From assembly GCF_003336875.1 (NCBI RefSeq), contig NZ_QGNJ01000008.1, positions 124,001 through 188,000 on the forward strand: 64,000 nucleotides of DNA, given 5' to 3'. Source of the DNA: Oleisolibacter albus. GTDB lineage: Bacteria > Pseudomonadota > Alphaproteobacteria > Azospirillales > Azospirillaceae. How positions within the stretch are numbered: the first letter of the stretch is position 1; each line of letters starts with the position of its first letter. The position numbers and the translations under genes were made by a program. Below are positions 2,724 to 16,304 of this stretch, in pieces. The notes under the pieces were generated by a model, which saw only the letters and a list, made by a program, of their open reading frames with translations, was not told the origin of the DNA and made no database searches.

Positions 2724-2753
2724 CAACACGCGCGGAGCGCATCGCCTGCGCCG

Positions 2754-3224
2754 TCACGGCTGCATCAGCAGGTCCAGCTTGGTCATGAAGGGCACCACCG
2801 CGGCGCGGTCTTTCTCGGTTTCCGCGGCCAGGACGGCCAGATCGGTCCGTTGCAGCCGGACCAGCGCCATCATCTCCGAGCGCTGTTCCGGTGTCAGGCT
2901 GCGGTCGGCGGCCAGCCTCGTGGCCGCCTTGGCGGCATCCAGGGGCGCACCGCCGCGCCGTTCCATCTGATACGCGGCCAGGATGCGCTGTCCGATGACA
3001 CGCCAGCGCTGGGCATTGAAACCATGATGATCGAGAACATCGGGCGCCGCCGCCGCCAGGGCCGGCAACTGTCCCGGAGCATGGATCGATGGCAGATCCG
3101 GCCGGGCCGCCATCTCCTCCGCCGCGGCGATGAAGCGCGCCACCTCCTGCGCCGGCAACGGATCGCGGGCGAAATCAGGGGCGGACAGGATGACAAACAA
3201 CGACAACAGGATCGCCGTGCGCAT
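2754..3224 (-). CDS. Exported protein of unknown function
   Basis: The predicted 156-residue protein begins with a short signal peptide (MRTAILLSLFVILSAPDFA). A mostly helical mature part follows, rich in Ala, Arg and Leu, ending in FMTKLDLLMQP. No cysteines or catalytic motif stand out. An alternative ATG at 3242 adds six residues before the hydrophobic stretch; 3224 gives the more typical signal peptide. It is convergent with the PLP enzyme, with a 30-base gap. I do not recognise the family; an envelope location is inferred from the leader only. Confidence 0.7.
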   Translation of the reverse strand: MRTAILLSLFVILSAPDFARDPLPAQEVARFIAAAEEMAARPDLPSIHAPGQLPALAAAAPDVLDHHGFNAQRWRVIGQRILAAYQMERRGGAPLDAAKAATRLAADRSLTPEQRSEMMALVRLQRTDLAVLAAETEKDRAAVVPFMTKLDLLMQP

Positions 3225-3767
3225 CTTCGAACCGGGGAGCATGAGGGCACAGTTTTGTACTCTATCCCCCGAAGGGTTACTACCGTTCTAACGGCGCCGT
3301 TCCGGTGGATTCAGCGTTTCGTCGCCGATTTTCAAAGAAATTTTAATATTCTCCGCTCCCTTTCCCGGTATGGACACACGGACAGGCCAAATGCAGGGGA
3401 TTACAAGGGGATGGCAGCAGCGCTGAACAGCCGGCCATAGCCCCGGTTCCACCGGCCAGAGGATGAGTCCGGGCCGTGCAAACGGCGAATCGACGGGACG
3501 GAGTCACGGGCCTGACCGGGATCGACGGCGACCATACCGGTTCGCCGCCCGCCCGTGCGGGAGGTCGCCCGGAAGCCTCGTTGCCGCCCCTGTCATTGTC
3601 CGCCACCGGCCCGCCCTTGTCCGGTTGCAGGGTCCGGTTTCGTGAATTTTCGACGGCAACCGCCGGCGGAAATGAGGTTTCCCTGAGCCGTCCCTTGGAT
3701 CGACCTTGCAAGGCGCCCGGCAAGGGCCTAGGGTCCCCTCGCCAGTGTAGAGGGGGATTCTACTTCC
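3225..3767. other. Long intergenic region, no gene seen
   Basis: About 540 bases lie between two divergently transcribed exported-protein genes. Open frames exist on both strands but lack ribosome-binding sites and family resemblance. The only compositional landmark is an AT-rich stretch near 3328-3352 (contains TTTTAATATT) in otherwise GC-rich DNA, a plausible promoter zone. No terminator, riboswitch or RNA fold was recognised. Confidence 0.5.
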
Positions 3768-5096
3768 GTGGTTCGGTCCGTTTCGCGTCCGCTCGTGCGC
3801 CTGCTGCTTGCCGGTGCCGCGTTCACTCTGGCGGGGCAAGCCGCCGCCCAGTCATCCAGCAACACCGGTGCCGCCGGAACCGTGCAGCAGCCGTCCGCCC
3901 CTGCGGGTGGCGGGCTGATCCTGCCGGGTCAGGTGCAGACCGGACCGGCCGGATCGCCGGCCGCCGGCACCATCGCCCCGCGGCCCCAGCAGGCCCCGAC
4001 CGCGGCACCTGCTCCGCAGCAGCCGGCCCAGGCAGCGCCGCAGCAGCAGCCGTCGGCCCAGCCGGCCGCCGCACCGAAGGCGCCGGGCAAGCCCGCGGCA
4101 CCGAAGGGCGCCTGGCAGGTGGGTCCGCAGGTCTTCACCGACGGCAGCTTCAAGCTCTGTGCCGCCGGTGTCGAATTCGACAACAACCTGCACCTGCTGC
4201 TGCTGCAGAATCCGGAAAAGCACACCAACATGGTGCTGGGCGTCCCTGGCGCCCGCATGCCACCCGGCCGGCAGCTGAAGGTCAAGCTGACCGTCGATGG
4301 CAAGAACAAAATCACACGGGAACAGCCGGCTGTGGTCAGCCAGCCCGAGGCCATCACCATCGGCCTGGGCAATGACGCCGAGCTGCTGAAGGCGCTGTCC
4401 AACGGCAGCGCGCTGATCGTGGAAGTGCCCGGCGACACCGCCAGCTTCCAGCTGAAGGGCACCACCAAGGCCCTGTCCGATCTGTCCACCTGCGTCGATC
4501 AGGCCAAGGCCGGCACGCTGAAGCTGCCGCCCTCCCCGATCCCGGTGATCGATGAGGATCTGGCCAAGATGCTGGTCAAAGCCGGTCTGCAGGATGCGCG
4601 GGCCATCCCCGTCGACAAGCTGCCGCCGCAGCAGCGTCCGGGTGATTACGCCTGGCAGCTGGGTGACAAGGTTCTGGGGTCCGTCCGCGGCTTCCCCGTG
4701 GGCGAGGAGGCCGGCGATTTCGCCGCCGTCACCCAGAAATACATGGATCAGCTGAAGGCCAGCTGCGAGGGCACCTTCACCCCGACCCTGGGCCAGATCG
4801 AGACGGTGCCGGCCTATCAGGTCCGCAACGTGTCCGCCCAGTGCGAGGCCAAGGAAGGCAAGATCTATGTCTCCATGGTCCTGCAGTTCATCCCCATTCC
4901 CAAGCAGCCGGGCCAGGACAAGGAAGTCCGCCTGCTGACCGTCTTCACGCATGAGACGGTGGAAGCGGAGAAGGCCAAGGCCGACTCGGCCAGCCAGGGC
5001 ATCCTCAAGGTGCTGAAGGAAAAGGGTAAGCAGCCTCTGGCCCAGCCGGGTCAGGCCCAGGATGGCAAGGCGCCGGCCAAGCCCGCCGGCAAGTAA
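3768..5096 (+). CDS. Exported protein with Ala/Pro/Gln-rich linker, unknown function
   Basis: The 442-residue protein starts at GTG with GAGGGGG about 12 bases upstream. Residues 1-28 form a signal peptide ending AAAQS. Residues 30-115 are a low-complexity Ala/Pro/Gln linker. The folded part begins near GAWQVGPQVF and contains cysteines spaced through an invasion-associated-locus-B-like segment (FKLCAAG, LSTCVDQ). A second half (about 255-410) has Cys residues in KASCEGTF and VSAQCEAKEG. The tail is again Lys/Pro/Ala rich. This pattern suggests a periplasmic protein with disulfides, tethered or spaced by disordered ends. The IalB resemblance is weak and is my inference. A strong hairpin terminator follows 25 bases after the stop. 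Confidence 0.75.
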   Translation: MVRSVSRPLVRLLLAGAAFTLAGQAAAQSSSNTGAAGTVQQPSAPAGGGLILPGQVQTGPAGSPAAGTIAPRPQQAPTAAPAPQQPAQAAPQQQPSAQPAAAPKAPGKPAAPKGAWQVGPQVFTDGSFKLCAAGVEFDNNLHLLLLQNPEKHTNMVLGVPGARMPPGRQLKVKLTVDGKNKITREQPAVVSQPEAITIGLGNDAELLKALSNGSALIVEVPGDTASFQLKGTTKALSDLSTCVDQAKAGTLKLPPSPIPVIDEDLAKMLVKAGLQDARAIPVDKLPPQQRPGDYAWQLGDKVLGSVRGFPVGEEAGDFAAVTQKYMDQLKASCEGTFTPTLGQIETVPAYQVRNVSAQCEAKEGKIYVSMVLQFIPIPKQPGQDKEVRLLTVFTHETVEAEKAKADSASQGILKVLKEKGKQPLAQPGQAQDGKAPAKPAGK

Positions 5097-5120
5097 CAGC
5101 CGGTTCCATCGCAGGATCGA

Positions 5121-5147
5121 CGGCCGGGCGGCAACGCCCGGCCGTTT
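5121..5147 (+). terminator. Intrinsic terminator after the exported protein gene
   Basis: A perfect 10-base-pair stem (CGGCCGGGCG with CGCCCGGCCG) closed by a GCAA tetraloop is followed by TTT. It lies just after the stop at 5096 and before glgE. Confidence 0.75.
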
Positions 5148-5245
5148 GCGTAATGGGCGACTTTTCCGTGCCTGCGCGGGGAACAGGGGGCCGGTCCAAG
5201 GGGTTGAGACAAAGCTCCTTTCCCCTTCTGTCCATGGGACGGACC

Positions 5246-8200
5246 ATGTCTGATGCCGCGCTCGCCCGCCCCTTCCCCCCCGAAGCCGCGGCGCCGTCGC
5301 CGCAGGGGGCGCCGGGACCGGGTCCCCGCATCTACAACCTGTTCCCCCTGCTGCTCGGTCCCATCGGCGGCTGGTCCCGGCATCTTCCGCGGATCGCCGG
5401 CATGGGCTTCGACTGGATCTATCTGAACCCGATCCAGTATCCCGGCTTCTCCGGCAGCCTGTATGCGGTGAAGGATTATTGGCGCCTGCATGACCGGGTG
5501 CGGGGCGATACGGACGAGGATGCGGATTCGCTGCTGCGCCGGTTCCACGCCGACGCCGCGGCACACGGCCTGTCGGTGATGCTGGATCTGGTGGTGAACC
5601 ACACCGCCAAGGATGCCGTCCTGGTGCAGGAGCATCCCGACTGGTTCCGGCGCGAGGCGGACGGCGAACTGCGCAGCCCCCGCGCCGTCGATCCCACCAA
5701 TCCGGCCAATGTCACGGTCTGGGGCGACCTGGCCGAGTTGGACTATGATCGTCCGGACTCGCGTGAGGGGCTGATCCGGACCTTTGCCCACTGGGTCCGG
5801 CATCAGGTCGAGCTGGGGGCCAAGGGCTTCCGCTGCGATGCGGCCTATCAGGTGCCGGCGGGGGTCTGGCGCGCCCTGATCGAGGCGGGGCGCAGCATCG
5901 ATCCCGAGGTGAAGTTCTTCGCCGAAACGCTGGGCTGCACGCCGCATCAGGTGACGGATCTGGCCGATGCCGGCTTCGACTACATCTTCAACAGCGTGAA
6001 ATGGTGGGACCTCAGGCAGGACTGGTTCATCGACCAGTACAACCTGTTCCGCACCATCGCCCCCTCCATCGCCTTCCCCGAAAGTCATGATACCGAGCGG
6101 CTGGCGGCGGAAGTGGGGAGCGACGATCCCCGCCGGCTGGCCGCCATCGCCAAGATGCGCTACCTGCTGGCGGCCTCCATCAGCAGCGGGGTGATGATCC
6201 CCGCCGGGTTCGAGTACGGCTTCACCCGCAAGCTGGACGTGGTCGATAGCCGGCCGGAGGATTGGGAGGCCGAGGCCGCGCGTCCCCGCCTGGACCTGTC
6301 CGGCTTCATCGCCGATGTCAACGCCATGAAGGCGGCGGTCCCGGCCCTCAATGGCGAGGGTCCGATGGCGCGGCTCAGCCCGCCCGGCAACAGCATCACC
6401 ATCCTGCTGCGCCGCGACCCGGCCGGCGGGGGCGCGGCACTGCTGCTGGTCAACACCGATGAAACCCGCAGCCGGACCGTCGATCCCGCCCCCCTCCTCG
6501 TTGCTGCAGGCGGACTGTCTTTCCGCGATGTCACGCCGGGCAAGACCCCGTCCGCCCTGGTTCCCGGCCAGCCGCTGACCCTGGAGCCGCTGGAACTGCG
6601 TGTCCTGCGCGGAGAGACCAGCCTGACGCGGCGGGAGCCCAGCCACGAGCAATCGCTGGAACGCCTGCACGCGCTGGCCGCGTCCAGGGTGGCCATCGAG
6701 GATGTCTACCCGGCTGTCGATGCCGGACGCTTCCCGGCCAAACGGGTGGTCGGCGACCTGCTGGAGGTGTGGGCCGACATCTTCTGCGACGGTCATGACC
6801 GGATCGCCGCCTGCGTCCAGGCCCGGGTCCAGGGGGAGGAGGGCTGGATCGAGGCGCCGATGGCGCTGATCGACAATGACCGCTGGCATGGCCGGCTGCC
6901 GCTGGACCGCAATGCCCGGTGGGAGTACCGGATCGAGGCGTGGCGCGATCTCTGGGCCAGCTGGCGCTCCGGCATCGGCAAGAAGCGGGATGCCGGTCGC
7001 GACATCGCCCTGGAACTGGTGGAGGGCCGCCGCTTGCTGGAAACGGCGGTGGACAAGGCCGAGGGACGGGCCAGAACCACACTGGCGGCCCATCTCGACC
7101 ATGTGCGGGCCGTACCGGACTGGGACAAGGACCGCGCCTATGCGCTGCTGACGGCGGAAACGCTGGCGGCGGACATGGCCCGGTTCGGCGTGCGCACCAA
7201 CCGCACCTGGTCGCGGACCTTCGATCTGGTGGTGGACCGGACGGCCGCCCGTTTCAGCAGCTGGTACGAGCTGTTTCCCCGCTCCATGAGCGATGATCCC
7301 GGACGCCATGGCACCTTCGACGACGTCATCGCCAAGCTGCCCTATGTCCGGGACATGGGGTTCGACGTTCTGTATTTCCCGCCCATCCATCCCATCGGCC
7401 GCAGCCACCGCAAGGGCCGCAACAACAGCCTGACTGCCGGCCCCGACGATCCCGGCAGCCCCTATGCCATCGGATCGGATGAGGGCGGCCACGATGCCGT
7501 GCATCCCCAGCTCGGCACGCTGGAGGATTTCCAGCGGCTGGTGGCCGCGGCACGCCGGCACGGGCTGGAGATCGCCTTGGATTTCGCCATCCAGTGCAGC
7601 CCCGACCACCCCTGGATCAGACAGCACCCGGACTGGTTCGACTGGCGCCCGGACGGCACCATCGCCTATGCCGAGAACCCGCCGAAAAAGTACGAGGACA
7701 TCGTCAATGTCCATTTCTACCGCGACGCCCTTCCTTCCTTGTGGCTCACCCTGCGGGACGTGGTGCTGTTCTGGGTGGAGCAGGGTGTGCGGATCTTCCG
7801 CGTGGACAATCCCCACACCAAGCCCCTTCCCTTCTGGGAATGGATGATCCGCGAGGTCCAGGACCGGCACCCCGATACCATCTTCCTGGCCGAAGCCTTC
7901 ACCCGGCCCAAGATGATGAAGCGGCTGGCCAAGGCGGGCTTCACCCAGAGCTACACCTACTTCACCTGGCGCCGTCACAAGCAGGAGATGACGGAGTATC
8001 TGGTGGAACTGACCCAGGGGCCGGCCAGGGAGTATTACCGGCCCAATTTCTTCGTGAACACGCCCGACATCAACCCGCCCTATCTCCACAGCGGCAATCC
8101 CGCCTGGTTCAAGGCGCGGGCCGTCCTGGCGGCGACCCTGTCCAGTGTCTGGGGCATGTATTCGGGGTTCGAGCTGTGCGATGGCACGCCGGTTCCCGGC

Positions 8201-8629
8201 AAGGAGGAATATCTCGACAGTGAGAAGTACGAGATCAGGGCGCTGGACTGGAATACTCCGCGGAATATCCGCGATTACATCCGCACGCTGAACCTGGCCC
8301 GGCAGCGCTTCCCGGCCCTGCAGCAGCTGACCAATCTCCGCTTCTACAACGCCTACAACGACCAGGTCCTCTATTACGGCAAGATGTCACCGGCCGGGGG
8401 AGAGATGATCCTGACCGCCGTCAACATGGTCCCGGATCAGGCCGTCCATCAGGTCTCCATCGAAGTGCCGGTCTGGGAGTTCGGCCTGCCCGACGACGGT
8501 GTGGTCGAGGTGGAGGATCTGTTCAGCGGCGCCCGCTGGTTCTGGTACGGCAAATGGCAGCAGATCACGCTGGACCCGGCGGTGAATCCCTGTGGCCTCT
8601 GGCGCATCACGCCCCCGCGTTCCGGCTGA
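5246..8629 (+). CDS. glgE: Maltose-1-phosphate maltosyltransferase GlgE with extra N-terminal GH13 (alpha-amylase) module
   Basis: GlgE transfers maltosyl units from alpha-maltose-1-phosphate to alpha-1,4-glucan. The 1127-residue protein is much longer than usual GlgE (about 650-700). Residues ~25-450 form a separate GH13 module with all catalytic positions: Asp198 in GFRCDAA, Glu227 in FFAETLG, His281-Asp282 in ESHDTE. Residues ~475-600 match the GlgE N-terminal DUF3416 region. The GlgE catalytic core follows, with ELFPRS, IHPIGRSHRKGRNN, nucleophile Asp854 in FRVDNPHTKP, acid/base Glu883 in AEAFTRP and Asp941 in NTPDINP. ATG 5246 is chosen; ATG 5234 and 5153 are in frame but the latter abuts the terminator. 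It heads the cluster with treS-mak and glgB. The N-terminal module may trim or extend glucan ends; this is inference. Confidence 0.92.
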   Translation: MSDAALARPFPPEAAAPSPQGAPGPGPRIYNLFPLLLGPIGGWSRHLPRIAGMGFDWIYLNPIQYPGFSGSLYAVKDYWRLHDRVRGDTDEDADSLLRRFHADAAAHGLSVMLDLVVNHTAKDAVLVQEHPDWFRREADGELRSPRAVDPTNPANVTVWGDLAELDYDRPDSREGLIRTFAHWVRHQVELGAKGFRCDAAYQVPAGVWRALIEAGRSIDPEVKFFAETLGCTPHQVTDLADAGFDYIFNSVKWWDLRQDWFIDQYNLFRTIAPSIAFPESHDTERLAAEVGSDDPRRLAAIAKMRYLLAASISSGVMIPAGFEYGFTRKLDVVDSRPEDWEAEAARPRLDLSGFIADVNAMKAAVPALNGEGPMARLSPPGNSITILLRRDPAGGGAALLLVNTDETRSRTVDPAPLLVAAGGLSFRDVTPGKTPSALVPGQPLTLEPLELRVLRGETSLTRREPSHEQSLERLHALAASRVAIEDVYPAVDAGRFPAKRVVGDLLEVWADIFCDGHDRIAACVQARVQGEEGWIEAPMALIDNDRWHGRLPLDRNARWEYRIEAWRDLWASWRSGIGKKRDAGRDIALELVEGRRLLETAVDKAEGRARTTLAAHLDHVRAVPDWDKDRAYALLTAETLAADMARFGVRTNRTWSRTFDLVVDRTAARFSSWYELFPRSMSDDPGRHGTFDDVIAKLPYVRDMGFDVLYFPPIHPIGRSHRKGRNNSLTAGPDDPGSPYAIGSDEGGHDAVHPQLGTLEDFQRLVAAARRHGLEIALDFAIQCSPDHPWIRQHPDWFDWRPDGTIAYAENPPKKYEDIVNVHFYRDALPSLWLTLRDVVLFWVEQGVRIFRVDNPHTKPLPFWEWMIREVQDRHPDTIFLAEAFTRPKMMKRLAKAGFTQSYTYFTWRRHKQEMTEYLVELTQGPAREYYRPNFFVNTPDINPPYLHSGNPAWFKARAVLAATLSSVWGMYSGFELCDGTPVPGKEEYLDSEKYEIRALDWNTPRNIRDYIRTLNLARQRFPALQQLTNLRFYNAYNDQVLYYGKMSPAGGEMILTAVNMVPDQAVHQVSIEVPVWEFGLPDDGVVEVEDLFSGARWFWYGKWQQITLDPAVNPCGLWRITPPRSG

Positions 8630-8894: not shown

Positions 8895-9548
8895 ATGAAC
8901 ACGTTTACGACCGCTGGCCTTGCCCTTGCCGCCCTGCTGATGCTTGCCGCCACCGCCCTCGCGCAAGAGGGGGGGGCTGACGGGAAGGCCGGGAACGTGT
9001 CTGTGCAGGGTCTCAGTGGCCGTCCGATCGACGACGGGTTCGGGATCGGCCTGCCGCCGGTATCCGGGGCTATGGCCCTGACCGGTGGCGGACCGAGCAT
9101 GGGTTCGGTCGGCTGGCAGCCGTTGGAGAGCCTGCGCGTCGAGCTGGAATATGCGCAGCGCAATGGCAGCCGCTCGATGCCCCTGGATCTCGGCAGCAGC
9201 GACGGCACGCTGGCATCCCGCAGCCTGATGGCCAACGCCATGATCGATCTGCGGGTGTCGGATTGGCTGACCCCCTATGTCGGCTTCGGCGTGGGCATGG
9301 CCCGCATCGCGCCGGACGCCACCGGCGCCCCCTCGCTCAGCGCCCGCAGCGGCGATGCCGTGGCCTATCAGGGCATCGTCGGATTGTCGGTGCCGTTCAG
9401 CGACAGCCTGTCCTTCTTCGCGGACGGGCGCTATCAGCGCACCGACGATTTCAGCCTGTTGCCCAGCACCTCAGTCGACCACAGCCTGCAGACCTGGTCC
9501 GCCCTGGCCGGGCTGCGCTTCACCTTCGGCGGCGGCGGCGGCAAGTAG
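8895..9548 (+). CDS. Outer-membrane beta-barrel protein (OmpA/OprF-like 8-strand barrel)
   Basis: The 217-residue protein has a signal peptide (residues 1-24, cleaved after ATALAQ). The mature part alternates hydrophobic and polar residues in strands such as WQPLESLRVELEYAQRNG, LTPYVGFGVGMARI and WSALAGLRFTFGGGG, the pattern of small outer-membrane porin-family barrels. It lacks a C-terminal peptidoglycan-binding domain. The last 78 bases overlap convergently with the 3' end of the minus-strand glycosyltransferase-like gene. It sits inside the GlgE cluster but has no obvious link to glucan metabolism. The start follows GGAG about 13 bases upstream. Confidence 0.75.
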   Translation: MNTFTTAGLALAALLMLAATALAQEGGADGKAGNVSVQGLSGRPIDDGFGIGLPPVSGAMALTGGGPSMGSVGWQPLESLRVELEYAQRNGSRSMPLDLGSSDGTLASRSLMANAMIDLRVSDWLTPYVGFGVGMARIAPDATGAPSLSARSGDAVAYQGIVGLSVPFSDSLSFFADGRYQRTDDFSLLPSTSVDHSLQTWSALAGLRFTFGGGGGK

Positions 9549-10475: not shown

Positions 10476-10636
10476 CGGGCTACATCCAACGGGGGAGTTC
10501 GTGCACCTTGTATGGCCGGGATGGAGACCGGTCAAGCCGGCCATCCCCTCTCCCGGCCTCGACAGCCGGTCCCGCCGAAACCAAAGTGCGTTACCGGTGT
10601 TCAGAAGAGACCCGCCCTGGATGTCATACGGCCATC

Positions 10637-13978
<3,342 letters not shown>

Positions 13979-14096: not shown

Positions 14097-16304
14097 ATGC
14101 CCGACCTGCCCATGCCCGACCGCATCGACAGTGCCTTCCACGCCGCCATCGAGGCCCTGCTGCGCGCCGATCATGGCGACCCCTTCTCCGTCCTCGGCCC
14201 CCATCCCGGACCGGACGGCACCTGGCAGGTGCGCGCCCTGTTCCCGGACGCCCGCAGCCTGTGGATTATTGCCGCCGACGGCCAGATCCTGGGGGAGGCC
14301 GTGCGGGTGCATGACGACGGCTTCTGGCTGGCCGAGATGCGGGGCGGGCAGCGGCCCTATCGTCTGCGCATCGATTTCGGCGCCGGCCCGGTCGAGATTG
14401 ACGATGCCTATCGCTTCAGCCCCTGGCTGGGCGAGTTGGACCGCCATCTGCTGGGCGAGGGCAGGCACGAGCGCATCTGGGAGAAGCTGGGCGCTCATGT
14501 GGTGGAGCATGAAGGTGTGCGCGGCACCGTTTTCGCCGTCTGGGCCCCCAGCGCCCGCCGCGTCGCCGTGGTCGGCGACTTCTGCACATGGGACGGCCGG
14601 CGCCTGCCCATGCGCCTGCATCACGGCATCGGCGTGTGGGAGGTCTTCGTGCCCCATGCGGGGGCCGGCGACCGCTACAAGTTCGAGATCAAGGGGCCGC
14701 AGGGCGAAATGCTGCCCTGGAAGGCCGATCCGCTGGCCTTCCGGGCCGAACAGCCGCCGGCCACGGCCAGCGTCGTCCATGGGCTGCCGCGCTGGGACTG
14801 GCAGGACCAGCTCTGGCAGGATGCCCGTGCCCGCGCCAACGACCGGGAAAGCCCGATCAGCATCTACGAGGTGCATCTGGGCTCGTGGAAGCGGGGTGAC
14901 GGCAACCGCTACCTGACCTACCGCGAACTGGCCGACGATCTGGTGCCCTATATCAAGGAGATGGGCTTCACCCATATCGAGATGCTGCCGATCACCGAAT
15001 ATCCGTTCGACGGCAGCTGGGGTTATCAGCCGATCGGCCTCTACGCCCCCACCAGCCGCTTCGGCAGCCCGGAGGATTTCAAGCATTTCGTCGAGACCTG
15101 CCACCGTGAAGGCATGGGCCTGCTGCTGGACTGGGTGCCGGGGCATTTCCCCACCGATGCCCACGGGCTGGGCCTGTTCGACGGAACGCACCTGTACGAA
15201 CATGCCGACCCGCGCCAGGGCTTCCACCAGGACTGGAACACGCTGATCTATAATTACGGCCGGCGGGAGGTGCGCAACTTCCTGCTGGGCAATGCGCTCT
15301 ACTGGCTCGACCGTTTCCATCTGGACGGGCTGCGCGTCGATGCGGTCGCCTCCATGCTGTACCTGGATTACAGCCGCAAGGCGGGGGAATGGGTGCCCAA
15401 CCGCTTCGGCGGGCGGGAGAATCTGGAGGCCATCGACGTCCTGCGCCGCATGAACGAGCTGAGCTATGGCCGCCATCCCGGCAGCATGACCGTGGCCGAG
15501 GAAAGCACCGCCTGGCCCGGCGTGTCACGGCCGGTCTATCTCGGCGGGTTGGGCTTCGGCTTCAAATGGAACATGGGCTGGATGCATGACACGCTGCAAT
15601 ACATGGCCCAGGACCCCATCCACCGGCGCTGGCACCATCACGATCTGACCTTCGGCCTGCTCTACGCCTTCACCGAGAACTTCATCCTGCCGCTGTCCCA
15701 TGACGAGGTCGTCCACGGCAAGGGCTCGCTGCTGAACAAGATGCCCGGCGACCGCTGGCAGAAATTCGCCAATCTGCGCGCCTATTACGGCTTCATGTGG
15801 ACCCATCCCGGCAAGAAGCTGCTGTTCATGGGCGGAGAGTTCGCACAGGAGCGGGAATGGAGTCATGACCGCGGCCTGGACTGGTTCCTGCTGGACCTGC
15901 CGGAGCATCAGGGGCTGCGCACCCTGGTCCGCGATCTCAACCATCTCTACCGCAGCCTGCCGGCGCTGCACCGGCTCGACTGCGACCCCGCCGGCTTCGA
16001 CTGGCTGGAAGGCGGCGACAACGAGAACTCGGTCCTGGCCTATCGCCGGCTGGACGGGCACGGCAACAGCGTCACCGTCGTCTGCAACTTCACCCCGATC
16101 CCACGTCAGGGCTACCGGCTGGGCGTGCCGGAGGCCGGGCATTATGTGGAGCGTCTCAACACCGATGCCGAGATCTATGGCGGCTCCAATGTGGGCAATG
16201 GCGGCGGGCTGGACAGCGAGGATATCCCCTCCCACGGCCGGCCCAACAGCCTGTCGCTGACGCTGCCGCCCCTGGGGACCCTGGTGTTGCAGCGGGAAGG
16301 ATAG
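14097..16304 (+). CDS. glgB: 1,4-alpha-glucan branching enzyme
   Basis: GlgB forms alpha-1,6 branches in glycogen-like glucan. The 735-residue length matches the full-length family with an N1-CBM48-GH13-C layout. The N-terminal domain spans ~1-115. A CBM48 begins near [22 protein letters not shown]13 marks are [15 protein letters not shown], nucleophile Asp415 ([10 protein letters not shown]), acid/base Glu468 ([10 protein letters not shown]) and Asp536 ([12 protein letters not shown]). GAGGGAA precedes the ATG. It completes the GlgE pathway in this cluster by branching the linear maltosyl polymer. GlgA and GlgC are absent here, so the window shows the GlgE route rather than the classical ADP-glucose one. 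Confidence 0.96.

What the first reader, a model, noticed from the sequence alone, without database searches (positions are those of the whole stretch)
5246..8629. GlgE with a second, apparently intact GH13 catalytic module at its N-terminus
The first ~425 residues form a complete GH13 catalytic domain with nucleophile Asp198, acid/base Glu227 and His281-Asp282, ahead of a complete GlgE core (Asp854, Glu883, Asp941). Two active glucan-processing sites in one chain could couple chain trimming or priming with maltosyl transfer. The arrangement sits in a cluster where the other pathway steps (TreS-Mak, GlgB) are also fused or adjacent.
Basis: partly seen in the sequence, partly recalled or inferred. 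Interest (0 to 1): 0.6.

Follow-up and report, generated by a model that had tools for sequence, protein, structure and literature searches.

The report
GlgE fused to second glucan enzyme
A bacterial enzyme that builds glycogen-like sugar chains carries a second, apparently intact starch-enzyme domain at its front end; the arrangement is common, but in most of the fused relatives sampled the extra domain has lost its active site, which raises a testable question about what it is for.

Summary
P0001 (window 5246-8629, 1127 aa) has an N-terminal GH13 barrel with all GH13 hallmark residues (D114, N118, H119, R196, D198, E227, H281, D282), then a complete GlgE (D854, E883, D941). TreS-Mak and GlgB follow.

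The fusion is not rare: 19 of 33 GlgE-bearing genomes in a sample of 289 Alphaproteobacteria, 22 of 69 in a sample of 397 Pseudomonadota (my row counts). Public records already name such proteins as single GlgE-type proteins.

The N-domain family also occurs as a free gene: of the 80 relatives kept from one scan, 48 are fused, 19 lie directly upstream of glgE and 4 upstream of treZ-treY. It resembles GH13_48/GH13_49 amylases but fails some of their markers, and lacks the GlgE signatures tested.

Of 36 distinct fused proteins in the two surveys, 9 keep the catalytic set (the window's among them) and 27 have lost it, often with Trp at the acid/base position.

Best reading: an intact glucan-cleaving or disproportionating helper tethered to GlgE here, from a line of domains that elsewhere became non-catalytic. 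Activity is inferred, not shown.

The parts
5246..8629 (+). Fused GH13-GlgE gene, 1127 aa (alternative upstream ATG at 5153)
5327..6535 (+). N-terminal GH13 domain, about residues 28-430
5837..5839 (+). Codon of D198, presumed nucleophile of the N-domain
5924..5926 (+). Codon of E227, presumed acid/base of the N-domain
6086..6091 (+). Codons of H281-D282 of the N-domain
6686..7240 (+). GlgE domain N/S (PF11896), residues 481-665
7241..8626 (+). GlgE catalytic barrel and C-terminal domain, residues 666-1127, with D854, E883, D941
8895..9548 (+). Outer-membrane beta-barrel ORF between glgE and treS-mak; link to the pathway unknown
10508..13978 (+). TreS-Mak fusion
   Evidence: TIGR02456 933.4 bits, TIGR02457 498.5 bits
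14097..16304 (+). GlgB branching enzyme
   Evidence: TIGR01515 959.4 bits

Best explanation
The protein is a GlgE maltosyltransferase to which a helper GH13 enzyme, elsewhere found as a free gene, has been fused. Shown from sequence: the GlgE half is complete; the N-domain has a full canonical GH13 catalytic set and none of the four GlgE signatures tested. Inferred: the N-domain is an intracellular alpha-1,4-glucan-acting enzyme (alpha-amylase or 4-alpha-glucanotransferase type, nearest GH13_48/GH13_49) that cuts or redistributes maltodextrin chains, so that GlgE, tethered beside it, has acceptor ends of suitable length. Also inferred: in many other lineages the fused domain lost catalysis and was kept for another role, most simply glucan binding or structure.
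For: D198, E227, H281 and D282 are invariant in the 39 N-domains of A3 (these rows were picked by conserved patterns). Confident GH13 fold, nearest 3dhu (Z 34.8) and GlgE 3zss (Z 34.6), tied. None of 57 fused rows carries KGRNN, QxxPDHPW, ENPPKKY or DNPHTK in its N-part, while the cores carry them in 32, 54, 50 and 57 of 57. The domain also lives as its own gene: of 80 loci kept, 48 fused, 19 split directly upstream of glgE, 4 upstream of treZ, 9 neither; of the 9, one is followed by a GH77 gene and one is preceded by GlgA-type and GH57 genes. Strong free-standing copies in the two surveys are intact, 4 of 4. Loss of catalysis goes with fast divergence of the N-part: at 50-60% core identity to the window, N identity is 51.5% (median, n=12) if intact and 25.1% (n=30 rows) if lost; the window has the intact set.
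Against: No activity is known for this N-domain group. Two fused relatives of the same family (L014, L015) have V or T at 198 and D at 227, and 27 of 36 distinct fused survey proteins have lost the set, so activity is dispensable. The window genome already has GlgX (2), GH77 (2), GlgP and GlgA, so there is no obvious gap to fill. Site-to-site geometry is undetermined.
Confidence: 0.55

Rival explanations
1. The N-domain is not an enzyme in practice, even here: it is a glucan-binding or structural (oligomer) module that happens still to have its catalytic residues. GlgE alone does the chemistry.
For: 27 of 36 distinct fused survey proteins have lost the catalytic set yet keep an N-part of similar length. 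In 17 full fusions, five of them dead (L014, L015, L016, L111, L112), G243-F244, S250, W253-W254-D255 and W260 are invariant, a stretch just after strand 6, presumably on the face of the cleft.
Against: In the window's branch all GH13 residues and 12 of 14 catalytic sets are kept, and the N-part diverges little more than the core. Without selection for catalysis the set would be expected to erode, as it does elsewhere. The four free copies of the surveys are intact.
Confidence: 0.25
2. The N-domain acts on a small sugar of the pathway (maltose, trehalose, maltose-1-phosphate or a product of TreS-Mak) rather than on glucan chains, for example to remove toxic maltose-1-phosphate.
For: It sits with TreS-Mak and GlgE, and free copies sit with treZ-treY.
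Against: The GlgE stretches that I recall as forming the maltose-1-phosphate pocket are absent from 57 of 57 N-parts. Closest relatives of known kind are amylases.
Confidence: 0.1
3. The long frame is an assembly or gene-calling artefact joining two neighbouring genes.
For: Free copies directly upstream of glgE exist (19 of 80 loci).
Against: The same fusion is found at 57-77% identity in 13 other genomes of the family and in 36 distinct survey cases, the window included.
Confidence: 0.01

Closest known systems
GlgE, alpha-1,4-glucan:maltose-1-phosphate maltosyltransferase (GH13_3; this number is recalled), e.g. Streptomyces coelicolor GlgE1 (3zss), M. tuberculosis GlgE (4u33)
   Same: Residues from about 476 to 1122 are a full GlgE with the catalytic residues and signature stretches
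   Different: The solved GlgE chains (663-723 aa) have no second GH13 domain in front
Fused 'maltotransferase domain-containing protein' / GlgE of Azospirillum, Burkholderia and Rhizobium records
   Same: Same two-part architecture; in the Burkholderia record the next genes are treS and glgB
   Different: In the Burkholderia and Rhizobium examples examined the N-domain has lost catalytic residues; the window keeps them
GH13_48 (Thermotoga neapolitana AmyB 4gkl, Lactobacillus plantarum 3dhu) and GH13_49 (Haloarcula japonica alpha-amylase)
   Same: 4gkl and 3dhu are the best sequence hits; Cys before the nucleophile and full catalytic set (markers from PMC11239784)
   Different: GFE/GYE instead of GQ at the end of CSR-VII, ESHD instead of NHD in CSR-IV, no [WY]-[GA] at the end of CSR-II
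TreS-Mak (TreS-Pep2) fusions
   Same: Another fusion of neighbouring steps of the same pathway, present in the same cluster
   Different: TreS-Mak fusions have been assayed in two organisms (PMC11046441, passages); the partner of GlgE here has not, as far as I found

Membership tests
GlgE (C-terminal half) | GlgE domain N/S (PF11896) and GLGE_C (PF21702) | tested here: met
   183.2 bits (cut-off 25) and 49.7 bits (cut-off 27)
GlgE (C-terminal half) | Catalytic Asp, Glu, Asp and GlgE signature stretches | tested here: met
   D854, E883, D941; KGRNN at 723, QCSPDHPW at 783, ENPPKKY at 810, DNPHTK at 854
GlgE (C-terminal half) | Maltosyl transfer from maltose-1-phosphate | not testable with these tools
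   no assay
GlgE (N-terminal half as a second GlgE) | GlgE signature stretches | tested here: not met
   0 of 57 fused N-parts carry any of the four
GH13 (N-terminal half) | GH13 barrel fold | tested here: met
   pLDDT 90.1, pTM 0.88; Z 34.8 to 3dhu, 34.6 to 3zss
GH13 (N-terminal half) | Conserved Asp and His of region I, Arg and Asp of II, Glu of III, His and Asp of IV | tested here: met
   D114, H119, R196, D198, E227, H281, D282
GH13 (N-terminal half) | Retaining glycoside hydrolase or transglycosylase activity | not testable with these tools
   no assay
GH13_48/GH13_49 | Cys directly before the nucleophile (shared marker) | tested here: met
   C197; 37 of 39 rows
GH13_48/GH13_49 | GQ at the end of CSR-VII (shared marker, 85.5% in the paper) | tested here: not met
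   GFE 21 and GYE 18 of 39 rows; the placement of CSR-VII is mine
[quoted passage not shown]
   SHD in the window; NHD in 1 of 39 rows
GH13_48 | L-[DN] at the end of CSR-V | tested here: inconclusive
   L165-D166 in the window, but E-I-D is the commonest type, 15 of 39 rows; the placement is mine
GH13_49 | [WY]-[GA] at the end of CSR-II and Asp before the acid/base | tested here: not met
   Y-Q in the window; Ala before the acid/base in 39 of 39 rows
GH13_49/GH13_38 | Glu in CSR-IV (the position before the last three) | tested here: met
   E279; Glu in 39 of 39 rows
Other CAZy GH13 subfamilies | Match to a subfamily HMM | not tested

The most novel reading that the evidence does not exclude
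The N-domain founds an unnamed GH13 subfamily of GlgE-pathway helper enzymes that has been joined to GlgE more than once. After fusion it has repeatedly been turned from an enzyme into a non-catalytic glucan-binding module, in a large group by putting Trp in place of the acid/base Glu. The window's protein is then a still-active bifunctional glucan synthase that both trims or primes and extends.
Probability: 0.35. Interest if true: 0.65.

Novelty: new variant of a known kind. Interest (0 to 1): 0.42.

Why it matters
GlgE needs glucan acceptors, and where they come from in bacteria that use this pathway is, in my view of the field (no tool result), poorly defined. A GH13 helper tied to GlgE by fusion or adjacency is a candidate source. 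Active-looking and dead versions of the same fused domain give a natural series for asking what a catalytic domain still does after it stops catalysing. It also warns that many proteins filed as GlgE, including those of Rhizobium and Burkholderia examined here, are not the actinobacterial form of the solved structures but carry an extra barrel of unknown role.

Tried and rejected
Second GlgE by internal duplication: rejected as a function. The N-domain lacks the four GlgE stretches tested and hits AmyB/3dhu before GlgE by sequence. By fold it ties with GlgE, so a distant common origin is not excluded.

Member of GH13_48 or GH13_49: not filed, since tested markers fail.

Filling a missing pathway step in this genome: rejected as the sole reason, since GlgX, GH77, GlgP and GlgA are present.

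A viral carrier: no relative confirmed in viral contigs (64 pattern matches, none confirmed).

Relative placement of the two active sites: not used, pTM 0.53.

Literature: nine searches aimed at the fusion or GlgE architecture listed no paper whose title or abstract start describes it; one search was for AmyB. The library holds open-licence papers only, the listings are capped, and the 2011 GlgE survey by Chandra et al. (recalled) is not held, so absence from print is not shown.

The Pfam name hDGE_amylase for the N-domain covers residues 35-132 only and does not make it a debranching enzyme. Pfam found nothing in the ORFs that I tested between 2754 and 5564, or in 2362-2970.

Rows dropped or doubled: L114 (the window again) was left out of the identity comparison; L016/L119 and L017/L137 are the same genes and both stand in its 32 lost rows (30 distinct). 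One search left out L114, L016 and L017. The tree used 92 rows that I chose; its free-standing rows come from the 80 kept of 513, picked by conserved patterns and so biased to intact domains, plus L021 and L023. The tree used 64 of these 92, without most lost rows and without L023. In the surveys I counted as fused only frames of 1000 aa or more whose match starts in the N-part. G049 (open frame 1899, gene 732 aa) and G676 (open frame 1284, match from position 427, not fetched) were counted as not fused. Weak GH13 matches (G053, G244, G312, G380, G495, G518, G545) were not counted as N-domains or GlgE.
Full report
What is there. The frame 5246-8629 (+) codes for 1127 residues. Pfam gives GlgE domain N/S at 481-665, an alpha-amylase match with best stretch 677-815, the GlgE C-terminal domain at 1033-1116, and a GH13-type match at the front. 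The eight best solved-structure hits are GlgEs; their best stretches start at residue 475-476 (six) or 545-547 (two). The N-part alone hits 4gkl (Thermotoga neapolitana AmyB, E 9e-21) and 3dhu (Lactobacillus plantarum amylase, E 2e-18) before GlgE (E 6e-14); the order is the same with a 39-row profile. The N-domain is predicted as one confident barrel (pLDDT 90.1, pTM 0.88). Its best fold matches are GlgE by Foldseek (4u33, E 3.1e-27) and, tied, 3dhu (Z 34.8, rmsd 2.8, 378 aligned) and GlgE 3zss (Z 34.6, rmsd 3.1, 399 aligned) by VIA-align. In the full-length model (mean pLDDT 83.6) most of both halves is confident, with weak stretches in the GlgE half (for example residues 711-750 and 971-1000), and pTM is 0.53, so the mutual orientation is not known.

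Surroundings. Downstream lie an outer-membrane barrel ORF (8895-9548), TreS-Mak (10508-13978) and GlgB (14097-16304), then MutY-type (minus strand) and SMC genes. P0001 is the only GlgE found in its genome (one full match and one weak match of 133 residues). The genome also has one GlgA and two GlgX over their cut-offs, one GlgP and two GH77 matches.

How common is the fusion. Of 59 genomes in the relatives search (own included), 14 have a full-length fused match, all in the window's family, and two more outside it (G046, G048) have a fused gene with an eroded N-part. In the same family one genome (G016) has GlgE without the N-domain, and one (G020) has the N-domain without a GlgE match, beside a GH77 gene. 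In 289 alphaproteobacterial genomes 33 hold a GlgE core by my count of rows, 19 of them fused. In 397 Pseudomonadota genomes 69 hold a core, 22 fused (partial cores included). The two samples share five fused genomes (G000, G046, G093, G274, G318), giving 36 distinct fused cases, the window included. In public plasmids the window's N-domain finds 261 records, 128 of them with a place that covers at least 80% of it; Rhizobium gives 141 and Sinorhizobium 50. Among the 60 listed, the annotated ones are called 'maltotransferase domain-containing protein', 'alpha-1,4-glucan--maltose-1-phosphate maltosyltransferase' or, once, 'alpha-amylase'. In a Burkholderia plasmid the fused gene is followed by treS, glgB, glgX, treZ, malQ and treY.

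The domain as a free gene. A profile scan of named genomes gave 513 relatives, of which the best 80 were kept. Of these 80, 48 are fused, 19 have the N-domain as a separate frame directly upstream of glgE on the same strand, 4 are directly upstream of treZ, with treY following, and 9 have neither on the held flank. In 13 of the 19 split cases the two frames differ; in 6 they are the same, so single-base errors cannot be excluded for those. Of the nine, L093 is followed by a GH77 gene and TreS-Mak, L104 is preceded by GlgA-type and GH57 genes, L096 ends 377 bases after the gene, and part of L083 is masked. In the two surveys strong free copies were seen in four genomes: two stand before treZ, one before a glgE match that is broken into two frames (G536), and one after glgA. 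At least three of these four lie on contigs of the same lengths as L069, L078 and L090, so they are not new cases. On a 64-row tree the fused/free label changes 7 times, and holding the free copies as one clade is weakly rejected (p-AU 0.03). Joining or splitting therefore probably happened more than once; support inside the tree is modest.

Catalytic state. In the window and 11 of the 13 other full-length fusions of its family, D198, E227, H281 and D282 are intact; L014 and L015 have V or T at 198 and D at 227. L010 keeps these four but has G-Q in place of N118-H119. Of the 36 distinct survey cases 9 are intact and 27 have lost at least one of the four. The four free survey copies are intact. 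The GlgE core keeps its D, E, D in all 60 rows. All 80 loci keep the four N-domain residues, but they were chosen by conserved patterns and closeness, so this is not an unbiased count. The fewest changes of state on the 92-row tree is three; most lost rows form one long-branched group whose inner order should not be trusted, and one intact row (L118) lies inside that group beside L119. With the core at 50-60% identity to the window, intact N-parts are at 51.5% (median, n=12) and lost ones at 25.1% (n=30 rows). Loss of the active site thus goes with relaxed or redirected evolution of this half only.

What stays in dead domains. Across 17 full fusions, five of them dead, the invariant N-part columns include G243-F244, S250, W253-W254-D255 and W260. 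The model puts this stretch just after strand 246-250, which I take to be the sixth strand, so the stretch should lie on the catalytic face. The Trp pair is also kept in L173, which has lost F244. In 16 of 32 lost rows (30 distinct genes) position 227 is Trp, and L173 shows the same AWT motif; several of these rows are close relatives of each other, so they are not independent events. The reading as a glucan-binding module is inference.

Which family. The N-domain shares with GH13_48 and GH13_49 the Cys before the nucleophile (37 of 39 rows), but has GFE or GYE, not GQ, at the end of CSR-VII (39 of 39), and ESHD (36 of 39) rather than NHD. The markers come from PMC11239784, of which I saw the abstract, section 9 and passages; its held main text has no occurrence of GlgE or Pseudomonadota. 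The N-part carries none of four GlgE stretches in 57 rows, while the cores carry them in 32 to 57 of 57.

Mechanism. Shown: architecture, residues, conservation pattern, gene company. Inferred from the families: the GlgE half adds maltosyl units to glucan ends; the N-domain cleaves or redistributes alpha-1,4 chains. Its company (glgE; treZ-treY; GH77; glgA) fits an enzyme acting on malto-oligosaccharides inside the cell. Fusion to GlgE would put acceptor production next to elongation. Why most fused copies then lost the activity is the open question; a retained binding role is the simplest account.

Literature. The review PMC11046441 (passages only: 12 of 37 places, 12 of 27; the held text is cut) describes TreS-Pep2 fusions and GlgE homodimers, and in the passages seen does not mention a GH13 domain in front of GlgE. 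The nine search listings aimed at it named none in title or abstract start. Subscription journals are mostly not held.

Verdict. A correct observation of a common but, as far as I found, little-discussed architecture. The window holds one of the minority of fused versions that still look active. New variant of a known kind, interest 0.42.

Noticed in passing
window 8895-9548: A small outer-membrane beta-barrel ORF sits between glgE and treS-mak, inside an otherwise glucan-synthesis cluster.
   Followed up: partly
window 2730-5152: About 2.4 kb upstream of the fused gene in which none of the ORFs tested has a Pfam match; could hold regulatory sequence or small genes.
   Followed up: partly
own genome C42 near 141975-145643 (minus strand): GH77 and weak GH13 (GlgX-model) matches both report an open frame of 1868 aa, possibly one TreY-MalQ-type fusion: a further glucan-enzyme fusion in the same genome.
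   Followed up: no
L062, L069, L078, L109: The N-domain as a free gene directly before treZ and treY, in MAG contigs; two survey genomes with contigs of the same lengths as L069 and L078 (G166, G314) carry a plain GlgE on another contig.
   Followed up: partly
L023 5507-6832 (minus strand): A remote free-standing relative (23-26% identity) next to a family-1-type glycosyltransferase gene and a GH13 gene; the catalytic residues appear kept.
   Followed up: no
L112, L120, L149-L152, L154, L155, L158, L159, L173: In fused but dead N-domains the acid/base Glu is replaced by Trp within an AWT motif.
   Followed up: partly
G676 C11:243307-245328 (minus strand): A GlgE core in an open frame of 1284 aa whose extra part does not match the N-domain model; not fetched.
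   Followed up: no
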